Source: an uncultured Bacilli bacterium (lineage in GTDB: Bacteria; Bacillota_I; Bacilli_A; RF39; UBA660). Taken from it: DNA of 34,429 bases. A program made the position numbers and the translations under genes. Location: the NCBI GenBank assembly GCA_947629475.1, contig CANRDV010000011.1, positions 1 through 34,429 on the forward strand, read 5' to 3'. A model generated the notes under the pieces. It was not told the DNA's origin, made no database searches, and saw only the letters and a program-made list of their open reading frames with translations. Shown one piece after another: positions 1,824 to 27,040 of this stretch. Positions within the stretch are counted from its first letter, which is position 1; each line of letters starts with the position of its first letter.

Positions 1824-3626
1824 TTATTTTACAATTTTTTCTATAAGTTTACGAATAGTACAATAAGAAATAAAATTTTTTAATATAAAGAAATATAATT
1901 TAGATAATAATTTATACCTAAAATCTTTATATAATAACATACTCGCTATTTCATCATCTTTACCAATTGTAATATATACTTCATATCTCTTTTTTATTGT
2001 TAAATAATTACTAATAATTGATATTTCATATTCTTTAATAACTTCATAATGATTAATAGCACTTTTGCTTTCATCAAAATTTATCCTATTAGAATATTTA
2101 TTTAAATTATTTATATTAATTGGATAAATACATTTATTTTTAATTTTTATAGGAACATTTTCTTTTATTTTTGCATAATGATTATGTATACCAATAGTAC
2201 AACTATATAATATTTCAATTGCTAACTCTTGATTTCTTATATTTCCCTTTTCACAATTTCCTTTAAAGAAATTAGTTAAATATACCTCTCTTGCAAGTTC
2301 ATTATATCCAAGCATATTTTTCTTTTCTCTATCTGAATATAAACTTCCTAAAGTAATTCTTTCAAAAGGTTTGCCACCAATTATATCTACATTTCTATAT
2401 ATATCAATATCAAAATGCTCAAGTCCACCTACTTCTTCTTCTAATTTAGAATCATCCGTTCTATCTTTAATTTCTTTAGATTGATAAGAGTGTACTTGAA
2501 TATTTAAAAGACTTCCTACTTGGATATTTAGTCTTTCATGCCTAACTCTACCATTCTCTTTATAAAAATTTTTAGTTTCTATCCAACCTCTCCTAGAAAA
2601 GCCATAATGTAACAGATTCAAATTTACATGAGTTATTAATTGATTAAAATTATTATAAAAATCTAAAACTCCATAAAAATTCTTTTCACCAAATTTTTTG
2701 AACTTAGGTATACTATTCTTTTGTTTTCGTGCATGGTAAAATACAGGAATTGTTTGATTTTTAAATATTTTAAAATAATCATCAATATTACAAATATTCA
2801 TTTCATCATCTGGAGTAAAACAATTACTATATACTTCACCTTTTGTTATCTTTTTAGAACCAGATAATTGTTCATTTATCTTAATAAAATCACTTAATAA
2901 ATCTATAAAATGATATCCACTATGATATAATTTACCATACCCATATTTGTATGGATGGTTCTCTTTTAGCATATCATGAGGAAATTCCCACGATCCATCA
3001 CAATGATAGATTTCAATTTCAGTTATTGGAATTTGATATTTATTTACAATTTCATTCAATAGATTTTTTATATAGATATACCCTTTATGATATTGTCTTT
3101 GACACATTACATTACAACTAGCAGTTGATGTTTCAGCAAGTTTTAATATTTCATAATATTGATTTCTAACTTTTTCAATACTTGCTAAGCTAGTCATATT
3201 TTTAGTTACAGTTATTGGTTTATCTGTTAAAACATTTATATTATTTTTCAAAGCAAATTCTAAATACATAAAATGGGCTTTTGGTTCAGTAGAAATAATC
3301 ATATGAGTTATTTCTAATACTTGGCAAATAGAAGATAAATTGTTAAAAATTTGATTTGATAAATGCTTATCATCTTTATAAATATCATCAATAGTAAAAA
3401 GTTTTGTATTTTTGAATCCATTTTCAGATAAGTATTTTTTCGTAGCATCTTTTTGTGAATCCAATTCAACAACCAATGCTAAATTAATCTTATATTTTCT
3501 AAAATAATTCAAATAAATTCTCTTAGCATGAGGACCAACTCCGATTAATACAACGGAGATTGGTCTATTATTTTTGGGTTTAAAGTCCTTTTTTAAGTTT
3601 TCTTTTACGTAATCTTCATTATTCAT
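1824..3626 (-). CDS. Gfo/Idh/MocA-family oxidoreductase
   Basis: The start is taken as the ATG at 3626 (600 residues) because AGAAGG sits 8 nt upstream; the ORF-track start is a TTG six codons earlier. The N-terminal Rossmann fold has the dinucleotide motif IGVGPHAKR (about residues 27-36). The family's EKP motif is present as DKP (LTDKPITVT, near residue 135), where the Lys is normally catalytic. The family uses NAD(P) to oxidise or reduce sugars and cyclitols. At about 600 residues it is much longer than typical members (~350), with an extra C-terminal half I cannot assign. It lies downstream of a LysR gene on the same strand and has its own promoter with an operator-like inverted repeat. 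The substrate is unknown. Confidence 0.85.
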   Translation of the reverse strand: MNNEDYVKENLKKDFKPKNNRPISVVLIGVGPHAKRIYLNYFRKYKINLALVVELDSQKDATKKYLSENGFKNTKLFTIDDIYKDDKHLSNQIFNNLSSICQVLEITHMIISTEPKAHFMYLEFALKNNINVLTDKPITVTKNMTSLASIEKVRNQYYEILKLAETSTASCNVMCQRQYHKGYIYIKNLLNEIVNKYQIPITEIEIYHCDGSWEFPHDMLKENHPYKYGYGKLYHSGYHFIDLLSDFIKINEQLSGSKKITKGEVYSNCFTPDDEMNICNIDDYFKIFKNQTIPVFYHARKQKNSIPKFKKFGEKNFYGVLDFYNNFNQLITHVNLNLLHYGFSRRGWIETKNFYKENGRVRHERLNIQVGSLLNIQVHSYQSKEIKDRTDDSKLEEEVGGLEHFDIDIYRNVDIIGGKPFERITLGSLYSDREKKNMLGYNELAREVYLTNFFKGNCEKGNIRNQELAIEILYSCTIGIHNHYAKIKENVPIKIKNKCIYPININNLNKYSNRINFDESKSAINHYEVIKEYEISIISNYLTIKKRYEVYITIGKDDEIASMLLYKDFRYKLLSKLYFFILKNFISYCTIRKLIEKIVK

Positions 3627-4937: not shown

Positions 4938-6377
4938 ATGTGTAAAGAATTAAAAAAGGAAATAGAAGAAGCAAAAAATTTGCCAAGAGCAGAAAGAAGA
5001 AAGGTAGAAAGAAAATTACAAAAAAAATATAATAATAAATCAATACGAATAGAGAAAGGTACTAAATTTAAAAAGACAAAAAATGAATTAACAAGAGAAC
5101 AAAGAAGAGAACTAATCAAAGATAAAGATTTACAAAAAGAAGTTATGAAAATAATAAAAAAATATCTTCCAGAACTAACTAATTTATTTTCTAAATTAAC
5201 TGATAAAAGACATAAGTCATATGTAACATATAAAATGCGTACCATTATCTTAACTAAGATAATTGCTCTTATATGTGGAATTACTACCATGACTGAAATA
5301 TCTTCTAATAAATTTAACACCGAAGCTGCAATTAAAAATCTTTCTAGCATTTGTAATCAAGAACTCAAAGAAATTCCTAATTGGCAAACTATTCAAGATG
5401 TAATTGAAACTTTAGAATATAAAGAAATTGAAGAAATTAGAAAATATATAGTTAATGCTTTAATTAGAAGTAAAATGTTTGATCGTTTCAGATATAATGG
5501 TCATATTCAAGTTGTTGTTGATGCTACTGGTATCACAGCTTTAGATTATAATTTAAATGGTAATTGTATTAGTAAAAAAAGAGATGGAAAAATAAAATAT
5601 TATAAATATGTTTTAGAAGCAAAAATAGTCTTTGGAAATATAGTTATCAGTTTAGATACAGAATGGATTGAAAATAATGAAATTAACACTGAAAAGCAAA
5701 AGCAAGATTGTGAAATCAATGCATTTAAACGTATGGCACCAAGAATTAAAAAAAATTTTCCTAAATTAAAATTTATTATTACTAGTGATGCTTTATATGC
5801 CACTACTCCTATGATTAATATTTGCAAAGATTATAAATGGAAGTTTATTTTTAACTTGAAGAAAAAAAGACTTAAAAATGTTTGGGAACAATTTGAAGAT
5901 AATATTAATTATGAAAATGAAACTTCTAAAATTAACTATTACTTATCTCGTAATATTAAATTCAATGGAAACACTTTTCATGCCTTTAGATATATTGAAA
6001 CCAAAAATAAAAAAACTACCACTTTTAACTATATTAGTAATTTAGATGTTAAAAATAGTAATATTGAAGAAATTGTTGCTATGGGTAGACGTCGTTGGAA
6101 AATCGAAAACGAGGGCTTTAACCAACAAAAAAATGGAACTTACTGCATTTCTCATTTATGTAGCAGGAATGAAAACGCTTTAAAAATTCATTACCTATTT
6201 ATTCAGTTTGCTCATATTATTAGACAACTTTTAGAATATGGTTCTATTATTTTAAGAGAAATGAATTTATCTACAAAAAAAGAAATAAGTGACATAATTA
6301 TCAACACACTCACTTATTCCACCACAACAAATCTTAATATTTTAGAACTTAATTTTCAACTAAGATTTGATAATTAA
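4938..6377 (+). CDS. DDE-type IS transposase (IS4-like group, family not settled)
   Basis: A 479-residue protein with a basic, coiled-coil N-terminal 100 residues and an RNase H-like catalytic core. Candidate acidic residues are D195 in VVVDATG, D284 in TSDALYA, and E390/E392 in RRWKIENEGFN, which resembles the YREK-like C-terminal signature of IS4-type elements. AAGGAG lies 9 nt before the ATG and TATAAT at 4905-4910. The frame is intact from end to end. It is the only plus-strand gene in the first 16 kb, inserted between the LysR and YolD genes. No confident terminal inverted repeats were found, so element ends are undefined. Confidence 0.85.
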   Translation: MCKELKKEIEEAKNLPRAERRKVERKLQKKYNNKSIRIEKGTKFKKTKNELTREQRRELIKDKDLQKEVMKIIKKYLPELTNLFSKLTDKRHKSYVTYKMRTIILTKIIALICGITTMTEISSNKFNTEAAIKNLSSICNQELKEIPNWQTIQDVIETLEYKEIEEIRKYIVNALIRSKMFDRFRYNGHIQVVVDATGITALDYNLNGNCISKKRDGKIKYYKYVLEAKIVFGNIVISLDTEWIENNEINTEKQKQDCEINAFKRMAPRIKKNFPKLKFIITSDALYATTPMINICKDYKWKFIFNLKKKRLKNVWEQFEDNINYENETSKINYYLSRNIKFNGNTFHAFRYIETKNKKTTTFNYISNLDVKNSNIEEIVAMGRRRWKIENEGFNQQKNGTYCISHLCSRNENALKIHYLFIQFAHIIRQLLEYGSIILREMNLSTKKEISDIIINTLTYSTTTNLNILELNFQLRFDN

Positions 6378-22862: not shown

Positions 22863-24167
22863 TTAGGATAAAAGTTTCTTAAATTCTTCAATTAAAGGAG
22901 TTATATTAGCACAGCTCATGAAACAGATAACATCATCTTTATGTTCAAGTAAAATCTCAACATTTTCAAGACTTAGTTTCTTAGCATCCTTTATTTTACT
23001 TATTAAAGTATCACTTGAGACATTCGGATAATCTTTAGGGTCTTCTCTATCACATTTAATATCCATGACATACGAATAATCAAACTGACTTAAAACATTG
23101 GCAAAATCGTCCATGAAGTCCTTGGTTCTCGAATAAGTATTTGGTAAGAAGACTCCAACTATCCTCTTTCCTTCGTATTTTTGTCTAGCACTATCTAACA
23201 CCGTTTTAATTTCTGTTGGATGATGAGCATAATCGTCAACTATAATGGTATTCCCAATCTTGGTTTCCATGAATCTTCTTGTTGCTCCATGAAAACAATT
23301 AAGGGTTTCAACAACACTATCTTTATCTATCTTATATAAAATTGAGACCATAATAGCTGCTAAACTATCAAGTATCATATGTCTTCCAAATAAAGGTAAT
23401 TCAAAGTGTTCATAAAATTCACCATGATAATAAACATCAAAACTACTTCCATCGGGAGTTAATTTTAAATTCTTGGCTACTAAATCATTAGATTCATTAA
23501 AACCATAGTAATAGGTTTGATTATTATTACTTTTTATTTTTAAGACGTTCTTATCATCTCCACATAAAACTAAATTAGTTGCCCTATCTGCTAATATATT
23601 AAAAGTTTTAATAATATCATCAATATCCTTATAACACTCAGTATGTTCTAAATCAATATTTGTAATAATTAAAGTTTTAGGATAATATTCTAAGAAATGC
23701 TTATTGTATTCACAAGATTCAAGAACAAATAATTTATTCTTCTTATCACCATGTCCTCGTCCATCTCCAACAAAATAATTACAACCAACTTCTTTGTCAA
23801 GAATACTTGATAGCATTAGACTAGTTGTTGTTTTTCCATGGGTACCACTTACTGAGATAGTTTCAAACTCTTTCGTTAAACTTCCAATTAAGTCTTGATA
23901 TCTAATCATTTTAAGACCTAATTTTTTTAATCTTACAATTTCCTTATGATTTTCATTAATGGCATTAGAAAAACAAACTATAAAGTCAATACTTGGATTA
24001 AAGGTATCATCATGATAAACTTTAATTCCACGTTTAGTTAAACCATCCAAAGTAAATTTAATATCCGTTGAATCATCATATCCAACGACCTCATTTCCTA
24101 AATCATATAGAAGTCCTGCTAAAGCACTCATACCAGAACCTTTAATTCCAATTAAATAATATTTCAT
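22863..24167 (-). CDS. murC: UDP-N-acetylmuramate--L-alanine ligase
   Basis: A 434-residue Mur ligase that uses ATP to join L-Ala to UDP-MurNAc, the first step of the peptidoglycan stem peptide, in the cytosol. The N-terminal nucleotide fold has GIKGSGMSALA (residues ~8-18), the ATP loop is SGTHGKTTT (about 107-115), the central domain has ITNIDLEHTE, and the C-terminal ligand domain includes DDYAHHPTE. The length is at the short end for MurC. Mpl is an alternative with the same fold, but the context and length favour MurC. GAGGTG precedes the ATG and TATAAT lies at 24189-24194. Its presence shows a walled cell rather than a mycoplasma. Confidence 0.93.
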   Translation of the reverse strand: MKYYLIGIKGSGMSALAGLLYDLGNEVVGYDDSTDIKFTLDGLTKRGIKVYHDDTFNPSIDFIVCFSNAINENHKEIVRLKKLGLKMIRYQDLIGSLTKEFETISVSGTHGKTTTSLMLSSILDKEVGCNYFVGDGRGHGDKKNKLFVLESCEYNKHFLEYYPKTLIITNIDLEHTECYKDIDDIIKTFNILADRATNLVLCGDDKNVLKIKSNNNQTYYYGFNESNDLVAKNLKLTPDGSSFDVYYHGEFYEHFELPLFGRHMILDSLAAIMVSILYKIDKDSVVETLNCFHGATRRFMETKIGNTIIVDDYAHHPTEIKTVLDSARQKYEGKRIVGVFLPNTYSRTKDFMDDFANVLSQFDYSYVMDIKCDREDPKDYPNVSSDTLISKIKDAKKLSLENVEILLEHKDDVICFMSCANITPLIEEFKKLLS

Positions 24168-24234
24168 AATTCACCTCTTTTTTTCACTATTATATCATAT
24201 GCAAAGAAAAGTGAATACTATTTTTTTAATTAAA

Positions 24235-24304
24235 TTAAAAAAATGCCTGGGGGGCAGCGTACTTAACATACGCTTAACATTTAGTTACCTACCCCAGGTC
24301 TTGT
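24235..24304 (-). ncRNA. Putative stand-alone small RNA of about 70 nt
   Basis: A strong promoter (TTGACA, 17 bp, TAAAAT) predicts a start at about 24304. The RNA folds with CCTGGGG pairing to CCCCAGG, enclosing the hairpin AGCGT-ATGTTAAGT-ACGCT, and ends in TTTTTTT. A repeated TGTTAAG occurs in the single-stranded parts. murC has its own -10 downstream, so a leader role is less likely. Family not recognised. It lies just after a DUF3800 gene; conserved DUF3800-linked RNA motifs are known in bacteria, but a match was not shown. Confidence 0.65.
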
Positions 24305-24310
24305 AAGAAT

Positions 24311-24339
24311 ATTTTATCATTATAATTTTACAATGTCAA
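24311..24339 (-). promoter_or_regulatory. Near-consensus promoter of the 70-nt RNA
   Basis: Minus-strand TTGACA (24334-24339) with 17 bp to TAAAAT (24311-24316). The -35 box overlaps the TGA stop of the DUF3800 gene. Confidence 0.8.
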
Positions 24340-25055
24340 GCATTTTTTACAATATTCTCTTTTTTATTATATTCAATTTTTTGAATTCTACCACTTATTT
24401 TATGTCCTGGAAATAAACTTATTCTGAAATTTTTATTTTTCAAAACTGGTAACACATTTTTTACAATTTCTTTATCCTTATAAAAATTATAAAATGTATT
24501 AACAATTAAATCAGCCAATTGAATACCATAATTAATTGAAGAATCATAGTAAGTAATCTTAAAGTCAAAGTTTTCTAAGCAAAATTCTGTTTTCAAATAT
24601 GTCTCCAAATTATTTAAATTCCCAACTCTTATATTTCTATTATCTATACTTACTATAAACTCTATATCATCACTAATCTGATTTAAATTTAAAAGTGGTA
24701 ATATACAATCTTTAAATATTAACTTAACAGCATAATTAAAGAAAATATTAGATTCAACAATTTCCTTTTTCATAGTTTTTTTATCAAAAATCTTTACGCA
24801 GCCATAAAAACTATCAATTTCCTGAATATTATTAAAAATTTTCTTCTTTTCACTATCCTTCATATCATATGACTTAATTTCTACATTTAAAGGTATATTT
24901 CTTTTTTCTTTTATTTCTTTATTTATTTTCTTATATAATGAAACTATTTTATTTTTATCTTCCCAAAAAGAAAAATAACCACCAACTGCAAAATATCTCG
25001 TCTTACTATTTTTATGAATGGAACCACTTTCATCTAAATACACAAATATTTTCAT
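24336..25055 (-). CDS. DUF3800 domain protein
   Basis: A 239-residue protein with the DUF3800 signature at its start (FVYLDESGS, residues 3-11), a central Asp/Glu-containing core (EIKSYDMKD) and ISYG-like QLADLIVN near residue 180. The family has an RNase H-like fold with acidic residues and is commonly found in defence islands and mobile elements; its enzymatic role is not established. GGAATGTGAG precedes the ATG. Two hairpins lie in its leader and a small RNA gene starts at its stop codon. Confidence 0.88.
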   Translation of the reverse strand: MKIFVYLDESGSIHKNSKTRYFAVGGYFSFWEDKNKIVSLYKKINKEIKEKRNIPLNVEIKSYDMKDSEKKKIFNNIQEIDSFYGCVKIFDKKTMKKEIVESNIFFNYAVKLIFKDCILPLLNLNQISDDIEFIVSIDNRNIRVGNLNNLETYLKTEFCLENFDFKITYYDSSINYGIQLADLIVNTFYNFYKDKEIVKNVLPVLKNKNFRISLFPGHKISGRIQKIEYNKKENIVKNA

Positions 25056-25074
25056 AATAACTCACATTCCTTTC

Positions 25075-25120
25075 GCTCTGTTCAAAGCATACAAAGTCAT
25101 GAAAAAATATTTTTCAGACT
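25075..25120 (-). promoter_or_regulatory. Two-hairpin leader of the DUF3800 gene
   Basis: Minus-strand AGTC-TGAAAAA-TAT-TTTTTCA-TGACT (25095-25120) and GCTTTGAACAGAGC (25075-25088) sit just before the ribosome binding site. A regulatory leader or DUF3800-linked RNA motif is possible; chance folding in AT-rich DNA cannot be excluded for the first hairpin. Confidence 0.45.
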
Positions 25121-25229
25121 ATCACATCCTTATATATATAATACTACATTTTTATACTAAAATCTAGTAATATGTAAAACATTTAGATAATATTACCCAA
25201 ATTTCTTATTTTGTAGTATAATATTAATC

Positions 25230-26153
25230 GTGATTATTATGAATGTATTGAAAAAATGTAATTTATGTCCAAGAAATTGTTTAGTTGATAGATATAATAG
25301 CCTTGGATATTGCAAACAATCTAATAAAATAAGAATTGCTAAAGCAGCCTTAACTTATTTTGAAGAACCATGTATTTCTAATTCTAAAGGAAGTGGAACG
25401 ATTTTCTTTTCGGGGTGTAATTTAGGATGTGTATTCTGTCAAAATAAAGATATCTCAAAAGATAACTACGGCAAAGTTATTTCTATTAAAAGACTATCTG
25501 AAATTATGTTAGAACTTCAAGATAAAGGTGCTATTAATATTAATTTAGTTACTCCGACACCTCATGTAGTAGGAATAGCAAAAGCAATTAAACTTGCTAA
25601 AAAGAATGGTTTAGTTATTCCAATTATTTATAATACTTCAAGTTATGAAAATCTTGATACTATAAAACTTTTAGATGGTTTAATTGACGTGTATCTTCCT
25701 GATTTAAAATATTATGATGATAAATATGCTCTAAAGTATTCAAAAGCTCCTAACTACTTTGAAGTAGCAACCCTTGCTATTCACGAAATGTACAATCAAG
25801 TAGGTAAACCCCAATTTGATAAAGATGGTAATATTTTAAAAGGTGTAATTGTAAGACATTTAATGTTACCTACTTTAAAAGAAGATACAAAAAATATATT
25901 AAATTATTTATATAATACTTATCAAGATAATATTTATATTAGTATAATGAATCAATATACTGTAATTAAACCTTTAAAATATAAAGAACTAAATCATAAA
26001 GTTACTGATAAAGATTATAATGAAGTAATTGATTATGCCATTTCTCTTGGTATTCAAAATGCTTATTGCCAACTAGATAATACAAGTAGTAAGGATTTTA
26101 TTCCTAACTTTGACCTTGAAGGAGTAGAAAAAAGTGAGCTTTCCCCTGACTAG
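25230..26153 (+). CDS. PflX-like radical SAM protein
   Basis: A 307-residue radical SAM protein of the PflX (COG1313) type, related to pyruvate formate-lyase activating enzymes but with unknown substrate. The cluster motif is CNLGCVFC (CxxxCxxC, about residues 67-74), preceded by extra cysteines (CNLCPRNC, GYC). The length fits the family. The ORF-track start is a GTG at 25230; an ATG lies at 25239. A -10 TATAAT at 25217-25222 predicts transcription starting within a base or two of the GTG and there is no Shine-Dalgarno site, so the mRNA may be leaderless. The last ~20 bases overlap an antisense small RNA. Confidence 0.88.
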   Translation: MIIMNVLKKCNLCPRNCLVDRYNSLGYCKQSNKIRIAKAALTYFEEPCISNSKGSGTIFFSGCNLGCVFCQNKDISKDNYGKVISIKRLSEIMLELQDKGAININLVTPTPHVVGIAKAIKLAKKNGLVIPIIYNTSSYENLDTIKLLDGLIDVYLPDLKYYDDKYALKYSKAPNYFEVATLAIHEMYNQVGKPQFDKDGNILKGVIVRHLMLPTLKEDTKNILNYLYNTYQDNIYISIMNQYTVIKPLKYKELNHKVTDKDYNEVIDYAISLGIQNAYCQLDNTSSKDFIPNFDLEGVEKSELSPD

Positions 26154-26230
26154 ACGAGCCCACAAGTCATTGCTTGCTGGTACATGATTAACATATACCC
26201 TCCAGTAACTCAGCGAACTACTCACTCACT
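26127..26230 (-). ncRNA. Putative stand-alone small RNA of about 104 nt, antisense to the radical SAM gene end
   Basis: A promoter (TTGACT 26260-26265, 17 bp, TACTAT 26237-26242) predicts a start at 26230, exactly at AGTGAG, which pairs with CTCACT at the 3' end before TTTTTT. Inside, GGUAUAUG/CAUGUACC forms an 8-bp hairpin with one wobble, and CAAG/CTTG competes with TGACT/AGTCA. No ORF. No match to SRP, 6S or tracr RNA was recognised. It overlaps the radical SAM coding end by about 21 bases. Confidence 0.65.
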
Positions 26231-26236
26231 AAATAT

Positions 26237-26265
26237 ATAGTATCATAAATGATAACATTAGTCAA
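26237..26265 (-). promoter_or_regulatory. Promoter of the 104-nt RNA
   Basis: TTGACT, 17-bp spacer, TACTAT on the minus strand, placing the start at the first base of the closing stem. Confidence 0.75.
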
Positions 26266-26280
26266 TAATATTAACTAAAA

Positions 26281-26364
26281 TTATTTAACATAATAATAAA
26301 TTAAACATAAAATCATAAATATAACTATTAAAATAGTTGGTATAAATTCTTTAAACTTTTTCAT
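26281..26364 (-). CDS. 27-residue single-helix membrane peptide overlapping tcdA
   Basis: An ATG at 26364 preceded by AAAGGAGAAG opens MKKFKEFIPTILIVIFMILC and ends YYYVK, a basic N-terminus plus one membrane helix. It overlaps the end of tcdA in another frame (the ribosome binding site encodes GEDNE of TcdA), so it is translationally coupled. Too short for the ORF track. Small membrane peptides of this type are real in many Firmicutes, but the function is unknown. Confidence 0.6.
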   Translation of the reverse strand: MKKFKEFIPTILIVIFMILCLIYYYVK

Positions 26365-27040
26365 TATCTTCTCCTTTTATATCATTTAAAATAATACTTG
26401 CCATATAAAGACCAAACATATTAGGTATAATTGAATTAGAACCAATTACTTTATCATGATATTCTATAACTTCTTTTGAATAAACTACTCTTATATCTAA
26501 ACAATCTTTATCATCTTTCAAATTATATCTTAAAATCTTTGCTAGTTTATCATAACTAGTATTTTTTAATTTAGTAACTTCAATCATAGATGGATTAAAT
26601 TTAAAACCAGCTCCCATACTAGAAATAATATTAATTCCCCTTTTAACACTTTCTCTAATTATTATTTCTTTACTTTTAACTACATCACAACAATCTAAAA
26701 TATAATCATAATCATTATTAAAAATTACATCTTTATTATCTGCATTATAAAATATAGGATAAGTTGTAACTTTACAATTTGGATTAATATCTAAAATTAA
26801 ATCTTTTAAAACATCAACTTTTAATTTACCAATTGTTGAATGATATGCTACTACTTGTCTATTTATATTTGTAATATCTACTTTATCATAATCAACTAAA
26901 CTTATATCATCAACTCCCATTCGAGCAATGGCAAGAGCACTACTTCCACCTACTCCTCCTACTCCAAGAATTAAAACTTTTAACTTCCTTAAATCATTTA
27001 TTTTATCTTTTAATAATAATTCTAATCTTTGAAATTCCAT
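26351..27040 (-). CDS. tcdA: tRNA threonylcarbamoyladenosine dehydratase (ThiF/E1-like)
   Basis: A 229-residue E1-like protein that uses ATP to cyclise t6A at position 37 of ANN-decoding tRNAs. The nucleotide loop GVGGVGGSSALA is at about 26-37, followed by LVDYDKVDITNINRQ, typical of ThiF/MoeB/TcdA. The C-terminal GSNSIIPNMFGLYMAS resembles the TcdA end. Length is near that of TcdA (~250). AGGAAAGG lies about 11 nt upstream. A small membrane peptide gene overlaps its end. Confidence 0.88.
   Translation of the reverse strand: MEFQRLELLLKDKINDLRKLKVLILGVGGVGGSSALAIARMGVDDISLVDYDKVDITNINRQVVAYHSTIGKLKVDVLKDLILDINPNCKVTTYPIFYNADNKDVIFNNDYDYILDCCDVVKSKEIIIRESVKRGINIISSMGAGFKFNPSMIEVTKLKNTSYDKLAKILRYNLKDDKDCLDIRVVYSKEVIEYHDKVIGSNSIIPNMFGLYMASIILNDIKGEDNEKV

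What the first reader, a model, noticed from the sequence alone, without database searches (positions are those of the whole stretch)
24235..24339. 70-nt RNA with near-consensus promoter beside a DUF3800 gene
TTGACA-17-TAAAAT starts inside the DUF3800 stop and drives a compact two-stem RNA with a U7 end. This is the strongest promoter seen in the window. The GC-rich stem is exceptional here. DUF3800-linked RNA motifs are known but their function is not, so this may be a new class.
Basis: partly seen in the sequence, partly recalled or inferred. Interest (0 to 1): 0.68.

Follow-up and report, generated by a model that had tools for sequence, protein, structure and literature searches.

The report
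Mobile DUF3800 gene–RNA module
Next to a gene for an RNase-H-like protein sits a real, conserved small RNA, and the two travel through gut bacteria as one tiny mobile unit that looks most like a toxin or defence enzyme held in check by its RNA; the RNA is a divergent member of a known class of unknown function.

Summary
At 24237-24304 (-) lies a ~68-nt RNA with a TTGACA-17-TAAAAT promoter whose -35 box contains the DUF3800 stop codon. It folds as a three-way junction closed by a GC-rich stem and U7. Covariation over 14 relatives supports the fold (99.2% paired, 9 of 19 pairs with changes on both sides, 0/500 shuffles). It is not a new class: it just passes Rfam DUF3800-I (45.4 bits, cut-off 44.2), though it lacks that model's 5' hairpin and GC-rich terminator hairpin, and 12 of 13 close relatives fail the cut-off. 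Gene plus RNA form a ~0.96-kb insertion between murC and a radical-SAM gene; ten congeners have the empty site. A second RNA (DUF3800-VII) was inserted alone 1.9 kb away. Relatives share only the module, at unrelated sites; orientation varies between subfamilies; RNAs outlive the gene. The protein has an RNase-HII-like predicted fold, and one DUF3800 branch has a protein partner that PADLOC lists as candidate phage defence (PDC-M04). Best reading, inferred and untested: a mobile nuclease controlled by its RNA, working like a type III toxin-antitoxin or AbiF system.

The parts
24230..25187 (.). inserted module (DUF3800 gene + RNA + their promoters); ends uncertain by a few bases in AT-rich DNA
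   Evidence: absent in congener G007 (flanks ~94% identical) and in nine other congeners where murC and the radical-SAM gene are direct neighbours
24336..25055 (-). DUF3800 gene, 239 aa, predicted RNase-HII-like nuclease
   Evidence: PF12686 E=4.8e-14; AlphaFold2 pLDDT 85, Foldseek best match RNase HII 1eke E=3e-5; conserved D8, E59, D138, D182
24334..24339 (-). -35 box TTGACA, contains the DUF3800 stop codon
   Evidence: and direct reading; same arrangement in many relatives
24311..24316 (-). -10 box TAAAAT
24237..24304 (-). window-type DUF3800 RNA, ~68 nt; start predicted from the -10 box, end at U7
   Evidence: Rfam RF02969 45.4 bits over 24209-24325; covariation; own model R1 102 bits
24246..24298 (-). 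P1 closing helix (24298-24292 with 24252-24246; inner 24289-24287 with 24255-24253)
   Evidence: 6 of 10 pairs with compensatory changes
24276..24286 (-). P2 hairpin (24286-24284 with 24278-24276)
   Evidence: 2 of 3 pairs with compensatory changes
24257..24273 (-). P3 core hairpin GCGUAU-GUUAA-GUACGC, the most conserved element
   Evidence: near-invariant in A4; shared with other DUF3800 RNAs
24237..24243 (-). U7 tract directly after P1 (probable terminator)
   Evidence: sequence
26128..26226 (-). second RNA, DUF3800-VII, without an adjacent DUF3800 gene
   Evidence: Rfam RF02967 60.6 bits
26134..26280 (.). insertion holding only the DUF3800-VII RNA and its promoter (TTGACT-17-TACTAT, 26265-26237)
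   Evidence: empty site in G004, G005, G006, G013 with a 0-16 nt gap; same RNA cassette at unrelated sites
22863..24167 (-). murC-like ligase, flanking host gene, not part of the module
   Evidence: empty-site comparison
25230..26153 (+). radical-SAM gene, flanking host gene
26351..27040 (-). ThiF-family gene, flanking host gene

Best explanation
The RNA is one half of a compact mobile two-component module: an RNase-H-fold nuclease (DUF3800) plus a small structured RNA made from its own promoter. Shown by computation: the RNA structure is conserved with covariation; RNA and gene are inherited as a pair; the pair (~0.82-1.05 kb) is found at new intergenic sites with nothing else; RNA-only copies with intact structure are common; gene-only copies are rare in this subfamily. 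Inferred: the RNA binds the protein in trans and holds its nuclease off, as an antitoxin does. When phage infection or loss of the module lowers the RNA, the nuclease acts and stops growth or phage replication. RNA-only copies would then be harmless leftovers, or protection against incoming modules.
For: Covariation in 14 window-type RNAs. In 386 family genomes, 17 of 20 window-type DUF3800 genes have the R1 RNA directly downstream. Empty sites for both insertions in the window and for the second module on contig 49. Among 29 window-type loci all 406 pairs share the module, but only 37 of 300 share the upstream and 5 of 253 the downstream flank. The RNA lies upstream, downstream or convergent to the gene in different DUF3800-I modules, so it must act as a separate transcript. 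RNA without an intact gene: 10 of 38 window-type loci with at least 760 bases upstream, several DUF3800-I and -VII loci, and phage contigs L314, L316, L322. Protein clades largely follow RNA families. Predicted RNase HII fold with conserved acidic residues. One DUF3800 branch has a partner protein in place of RNA, and the pair is PADLOC PDC-M04A/B. Three RNA copies at one gene (L021). Modules in Streptococcus satellite phages. AbiF is a proven precedent for RNA neutralising a toxic protein (PMC12373285).
Against: No toxicity, binding or phage data. One intact window-type gene (L336) shows no RNA, although its contig ends 118 bases after the gene. Classic type III antitoxins are repeats in the same operon; here the RNA is usually single, with its own promoter, and sometimes convergent. 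RNA-only loci could be simple decay products. PDC-M04 is only a candidate defence label. The conserved P3 loop could equally serve an activating cofactor.
Confidence: 0.5

Rival explanations
1. The RNA is an activating cofactor or guide of the DUF3800 nuclease (OMEGA/TnpB-like); the pair acts on foreign nucleic acid or spreads itself.
For: RNase-H-like fold plus structured RNA; module and RNA-only copies at new sites; DUF3800 in some class 2 CRISPR loci (PMC10910872, PMC12669027).
Against: No guide-like variable segment: unpaired parts are among the most conserved (A4), and in the contig-49 type the main variation is in one hairpin. The RNA ends at a terminator, not in flanking DNA. No common target motif was recognised at the three empty sites of this genome.
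Confidence: 0.2
2. The RNA is a cis-regulator or terminator of the DUF3800 mRNA.
For: P1 followed by U7 can terminate; the -35 box overlaps the gene's stop codon.
Against: In relatives the RNA lies upstream, downstream or convergent; it has its own promoter; it persists without the gene.
Confidence: 0.1
3. The RNA acts on host genes (a regulatory sRNA), and DUF3800 processes or degrades it.
For: RNA-only copies persist with intact structure and promoter; a nuclease partner.
Against: Protein clades largely follow RNA families and linkage is tight, which favours direct pairing; patchy presence argues against a housekeeping target.
Confidence: 0.1

Closest known systems
DUF3800-I RNA (Rfam RF02969)
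   Same: P1, inner helix, P3 core hairpin UUAAGCG...UAAGUACGC, adjacency to DUF3800; 45.4 bits against a cut-off of 44.2
   Different: lacks the 5' hairpin and the separate GC-rich terminator hairpin of the model; 12 of 13 close relatives fall below the cut-off; its protein lies outside the main DUF3800-I clades
DUF3800-VII and -VIII RNAs (RF02967, RF03075)
   Same: small RNA next to a DUF3800 gene, found as a unit at unrelated sites
   Different: different RNA structure models; convergent with the gene in the loci seen here
AbiF with ncRNA RCd22 (PMC12373285)
   Same: structured small RNA paired with a protein on mobile DNA; neutralisation in trans is shown there and proposed here
   Different: AbiF belongs to the Abi_2/AbiD/F family with links to Cas13; here an RNase-H-like protein; no experiment yet
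Type III toxin-antitoxin (ToxIN)
   Same: nuclease plus RNA partner, mobile, spread patchily
   Different: ToxI is a repeat array co-transcribed with the toxin; here usually one RNA with its own promoter, in any orientation; different protein fold (my knowledge of ToxN)
PDC-M04 candidate defence system (PADLOC)
   Same: PDC-M04A is a DUF3800 protein
   Different: its partner is a protein, PDC-M04B; the window protein itself does not match the PDC-M04A models

Membership tests
Rfam DUF3800-I (RF02969) | score above the curated cut-off | tested here: met
   45.4 against 44.2 bits, E=0.00058 for the window; 4.2e-5 on 2.5 kb
Rfam DUF3800-I (RF02969) | P1 and P3 core with compensatory changes | tested here: met
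Rfam DUF3800-I (RF02969) | 5' hairpin of the model | tested here: not met
   non-pairs in the cmscan alignment; that stretch is the promoter here
Rfam DUF3800-I (RF02969) | separate GC-rich terminator hairpin | tested here: not met
   replaced by P1+U7 and an AT-only repeat
Rfam DUF3800-I (RF02969) | adjacent DUF3800 gene | tested here: met
   PF12686 in window 24336-25055
Type III toxin-antitoxin | protein is toxic and RNA neutralises it by binding | not testable with these tools
   needs experiment
Type III toxin-antitoxin | tandem RNA repeats in the same operon upstream of the toxin | tested here: not met
   single RNA with own promoter downstream of the gene; three copies only at L021, on the opposite strand
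OMEGA-like RNA-guided nuclease | RNA carries a variable guide taken from flanking DNA | tested here: not met
   no variable unpaired segment; RNA ends at U7 inside the module
PDC-M04 candidate defence | PDC-M04A and PDC-M04B proteins together | tested here: not met
   window protein has no PADLOC hit and no partner gene beside it
riboswitch / known cis-regulator | match to a riboswitch family above cut-off at this place | tested here: not met
   only DUF3800-I passes at 24209-24325

The most novel reading that the evidence does not exclude
DUF3800 modules are a broad, so far unrecognised class of toxin-antitoxin or abortive-infection systems: an RNase-HII-like nuclease restrained by a small junction RNA in most branches and by a protein (PDC-M04B) in one, spreading as units under 1.1 kb, with RNA-only copies, including some on phage contigs, acting as antidotes.
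Probability: 0.35. Interest if true: 0.85.

Novelty: new variant of a known kind. Interest (0 to 1): 0.58.

Why it matters
Several DUF3800 RNA families are catalogued in Rfam without a known function. Evidence that gene and RNA are one mobile pair, that the RNA can outlive the gene, that the protein is predicted to be RNase-HII-like, and that a sister branch with a protein partner is a candidate phage-defence system turns an orphan class into a directly testable hypothesis. It also shows that the current Rfam model misses a coherent subfamily seen in about 50 species genomes.

Tried and rejected
The search for related loci with the single window protein found nothing; too divergent for that method. 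The MAFFT alignment of all DUF3800-I RNAs misplaces P1, so only its P3 counts were used; a clean alignment of the window type was made instead. The joint alignment of the window type with the contig-49 type misaligns P1 and was not used. Apparent broken genes in small genomes of other families (L117, L122, L124, L126) turned out open under genetic code 4 and were removed from the list of decayed genes. A fixed insertion target was considered: the contig-49 insert is flanked by a ~25-bp copy of a resident terminator, but the two window insertions show no clear duplication, so no target rule is claimed. Flanks of two other DUF3800-VII modules gave no clean empty sites. Window-type RNA in viral contigs: none. 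The SAM-II hit at 25278-25352 is below cut-off and inside a gene. The profile search of PDB sequences gave only weak matches; the fold comparison was used.

Full report
The observation. The window has GC 22.8%; the RNA has 44%, and only four regions of that length are as GC-rich. The promoter TTGACA-17-TAAAAT lies at 24339-24311 on the minus strand. Its -35 box contains the TGA stop of the DUF3800 gene at 24336-25055 (PF12686, E=4.8e-14). Ten sites in the window tie at 11 of 12 promoter matches, so 'strongest' is overstated, but a perfect TTGACA is rare. The predicted RNA runs from ~24304 to 24237, 68 nt, ending in U7. The 117-nt Rfam hit folds at -27.8 kcal/mol, z = -3.2.

Identity. Rfam calls 24209-24325 (-) DUF3800-I at 45.4 bits, just over the cut-off of 44.2. 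The match is partial in structure: P1 and P3 fit, the model's 5' hairpin does not form because that stretch is the promoter, and the separate terminator hairpin is replaced by P1+U7. A scan for the P3 core in 386 family genomes gave 18 hits, against none for the reversed control pattern. Most are window-type RNAs, two are ordinary DUF3800-I RNAs, and at least two (L232, L234) look like chance. Fourteen window-type RNAs align cleanly. Their three-way junction is supported by covariation: 99.2% of cells paired, 9 of 19 pairs with changes on both sides, no shuffle as high, and slid controls at 31-45%. Only one of the 13 relatives passes the Rfam cut-off. A stricter pattern found 50 loci in the one-genome-per-species collection, nearly all titled as Bacilli, Tenericutes, Erysipelotrichaceae or other Bacillota metagenome assemblies. 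The RNA is therefore a divergent subfamily of a known class.

Linkage. In the same 386 genomes, 20 window-type DUF3800 genes (48% identity or more) were found. Seventeen have the RNA directly downstream, at 76-105 bits with the new model R1. Of the other three, one is partial, one holds stop codons, and one (L336) is intact but its contig ends 118 bases after the gene. In a protein tree the RNA types mostly fall into their own clades (DUF3800-I with the RNA upstream, DUF3800-I convergent, VII, VIII), and the window protein groups with G310 apart from the main DUF3800-I clades (several deep branches are weak and long branches are flagged). Many DUF3800 genes without an Rfam hit nevertheless have a small RNA with a promoter beside them: the contig-49 type of this same genome, the L019, L022 and L027 types, Streptococcus satellite phages Javan276 and Javan529, and a Fusobacterium record. 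Several share the P3-like core hairpin. These RNAs rest on sequence reading and single-sequence folding and deserve their own models.

Mobility. Ten congeners have murC and the radical-SAM gene as direct neighbours, without the module. Against G007, whose flanks are ~94% identical, the insertion is ~24230-25187. At 26134-26280 a second insertion holds only a DUF3800-VII RNA and its promoter; four congeners have the empty site. The same RNA cassette sits next to a DUF3800 gene in G010 and G063, and alone in G023 and G038, at unrelated sites, with homology running from about 40-70 bases upstream of the RNA to its 3' end. The second DUF3800 module of this genome (contig 49) is also an insertion, flanked by ~25-bp copies of a resident terminator. 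Among 29 window-type loci with an intact gene, all 406 pairs share the module at a mean 78% identity, but only 37 of 300 share the upstream and 5 of 253 the downstream flank. How the unit moves is unknown; no transposase or fixed target was seen.

RNA outlives gene. Of 38 window-type RNA loci with at least 760 bases upstream, 28 have an intact gene, two a broken or truncated one and eight none; four of the eight share one site. In DUF3800-I the gene is missing or decayed at several loci after allowing for genetic code 4. In viral contigs L314 and L322 the promoter-RNA-terminator cassette of L295 recurs at 99% identity but is followed by a KilA-N gene instead of DUF3800. L316 carries a 70.5-bit DUF3800-I RNA and no DUF3800 gene in 10 kb. 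These are the asymmetries expected if the RNA is safe alone and the protein is not; they are also compatible with plain decay.

Protein. AlphaFold2 gives pLDDT 85 and pTM 0.85. The best solved match is RNase HII 1eke (E=3e-5, probability 1.0, TM 0.48-0.58), and the best viral match is another DUF3800 protein. D8, S10 and D182 are invariant and E59, K61 and D138 nearly so in 35 proteins. A published prediction also found an RNase H fold (PMC10910872), and DUF3800 is described as an RNase H fold nuclease encoded in some type VI-F and V-A2 CRISPR loci (PMC12669027). In the branch with L018, L023 and L031 a second protein takes the place of the RNA; PADLOC labels the pair PDC-M04A/B. Another branch (L016, L020, L033) is followed closely by a YdcF-like gene (my reading) with no RNA seen in the flanks read.

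Mechanism. Shown: conserved RNA, tight pairing, mobility, RNA-only copies, predicted nuclease fold. Inferred: the RNA binds and restrains the protein in trans. The invariant P3 loop, the lack of a guide-like variable stretch, the freedom of orientation and the retention of RNA without gene favour recognition of a fixed RNA by its protein. AbiF with RCd22 (PMC12373285) shows that such an RNA can neutralise a toxic partner. An activating cofactor role remains open. The antitoxin-like reading is given 0.5.

Limits. No expression, binding or phenotype data. The original paper describing the DUF3800 motifs is not in the library, so I cannot say what its authors noted about orientation or RNA-only copies. 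Genomes are mostly metagenome assemblies; the window's flanks match congeners well, which argues against misassembly.

Noticed in passing
window 26128-26226: A second DUF3800-class RNA (DUF3800-VII) inserted without a DUF3800 gene between the radical-SAM and ThiF genes.
   Followed up: yes
L128 (contig 49 of the same genome) ~5010-5140: A DUF3800-associated RNA with no Rfam match; relatives L024, L029, L343-L348 carry it with different terminator hairpins; the module is flanked by ~25-bp copies of a resident terminator.
   Followed up: partly
L021 2160-2500: Three tandem copies of a DUF3800-type RNA, apparently each with its own promoter and terminator, opposite a DUF3800 gene.
   Followed up: partly
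L018, L023, L026, L031: DUF3800 genes followed by a partner protein; PADLOC PDC-M04A/B.
   Followed up: partly
L222 ~3195-3310 and L223 ~3030-3145: Streptococcus satellite phages with a DUF3800 gene and an unlisted RNA behind a TTGACA/TATAAT promoter.
   Followed up: partly
L295, L314, L322: A promoter-RNA-terminator cassette 99% identical in three viral contigs, followed by DUF3800 in one and by a KilA-N gene in two; L295 also holds three sRNA-Xcc1 copies.
   Followed up: partly
L296 around the core motif (5662-5680): A DUF3800-like RNA directly upstream of what reads as a tmRNA gene in a 192-kb contig listed as viral.
   Followed up: no
L019, L349, L350, L352: Another unlisted RNA type (GACCGGCAUAU...GCCGGUC) right after DUF3800 genes, behind TTGACA-type promoters.
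   Followed up: no
L016, L028, L029, L033, L009, L012: tRNA genes near several DUF3800 genes or RNAs; possible insertion preference.
   Followed up: no
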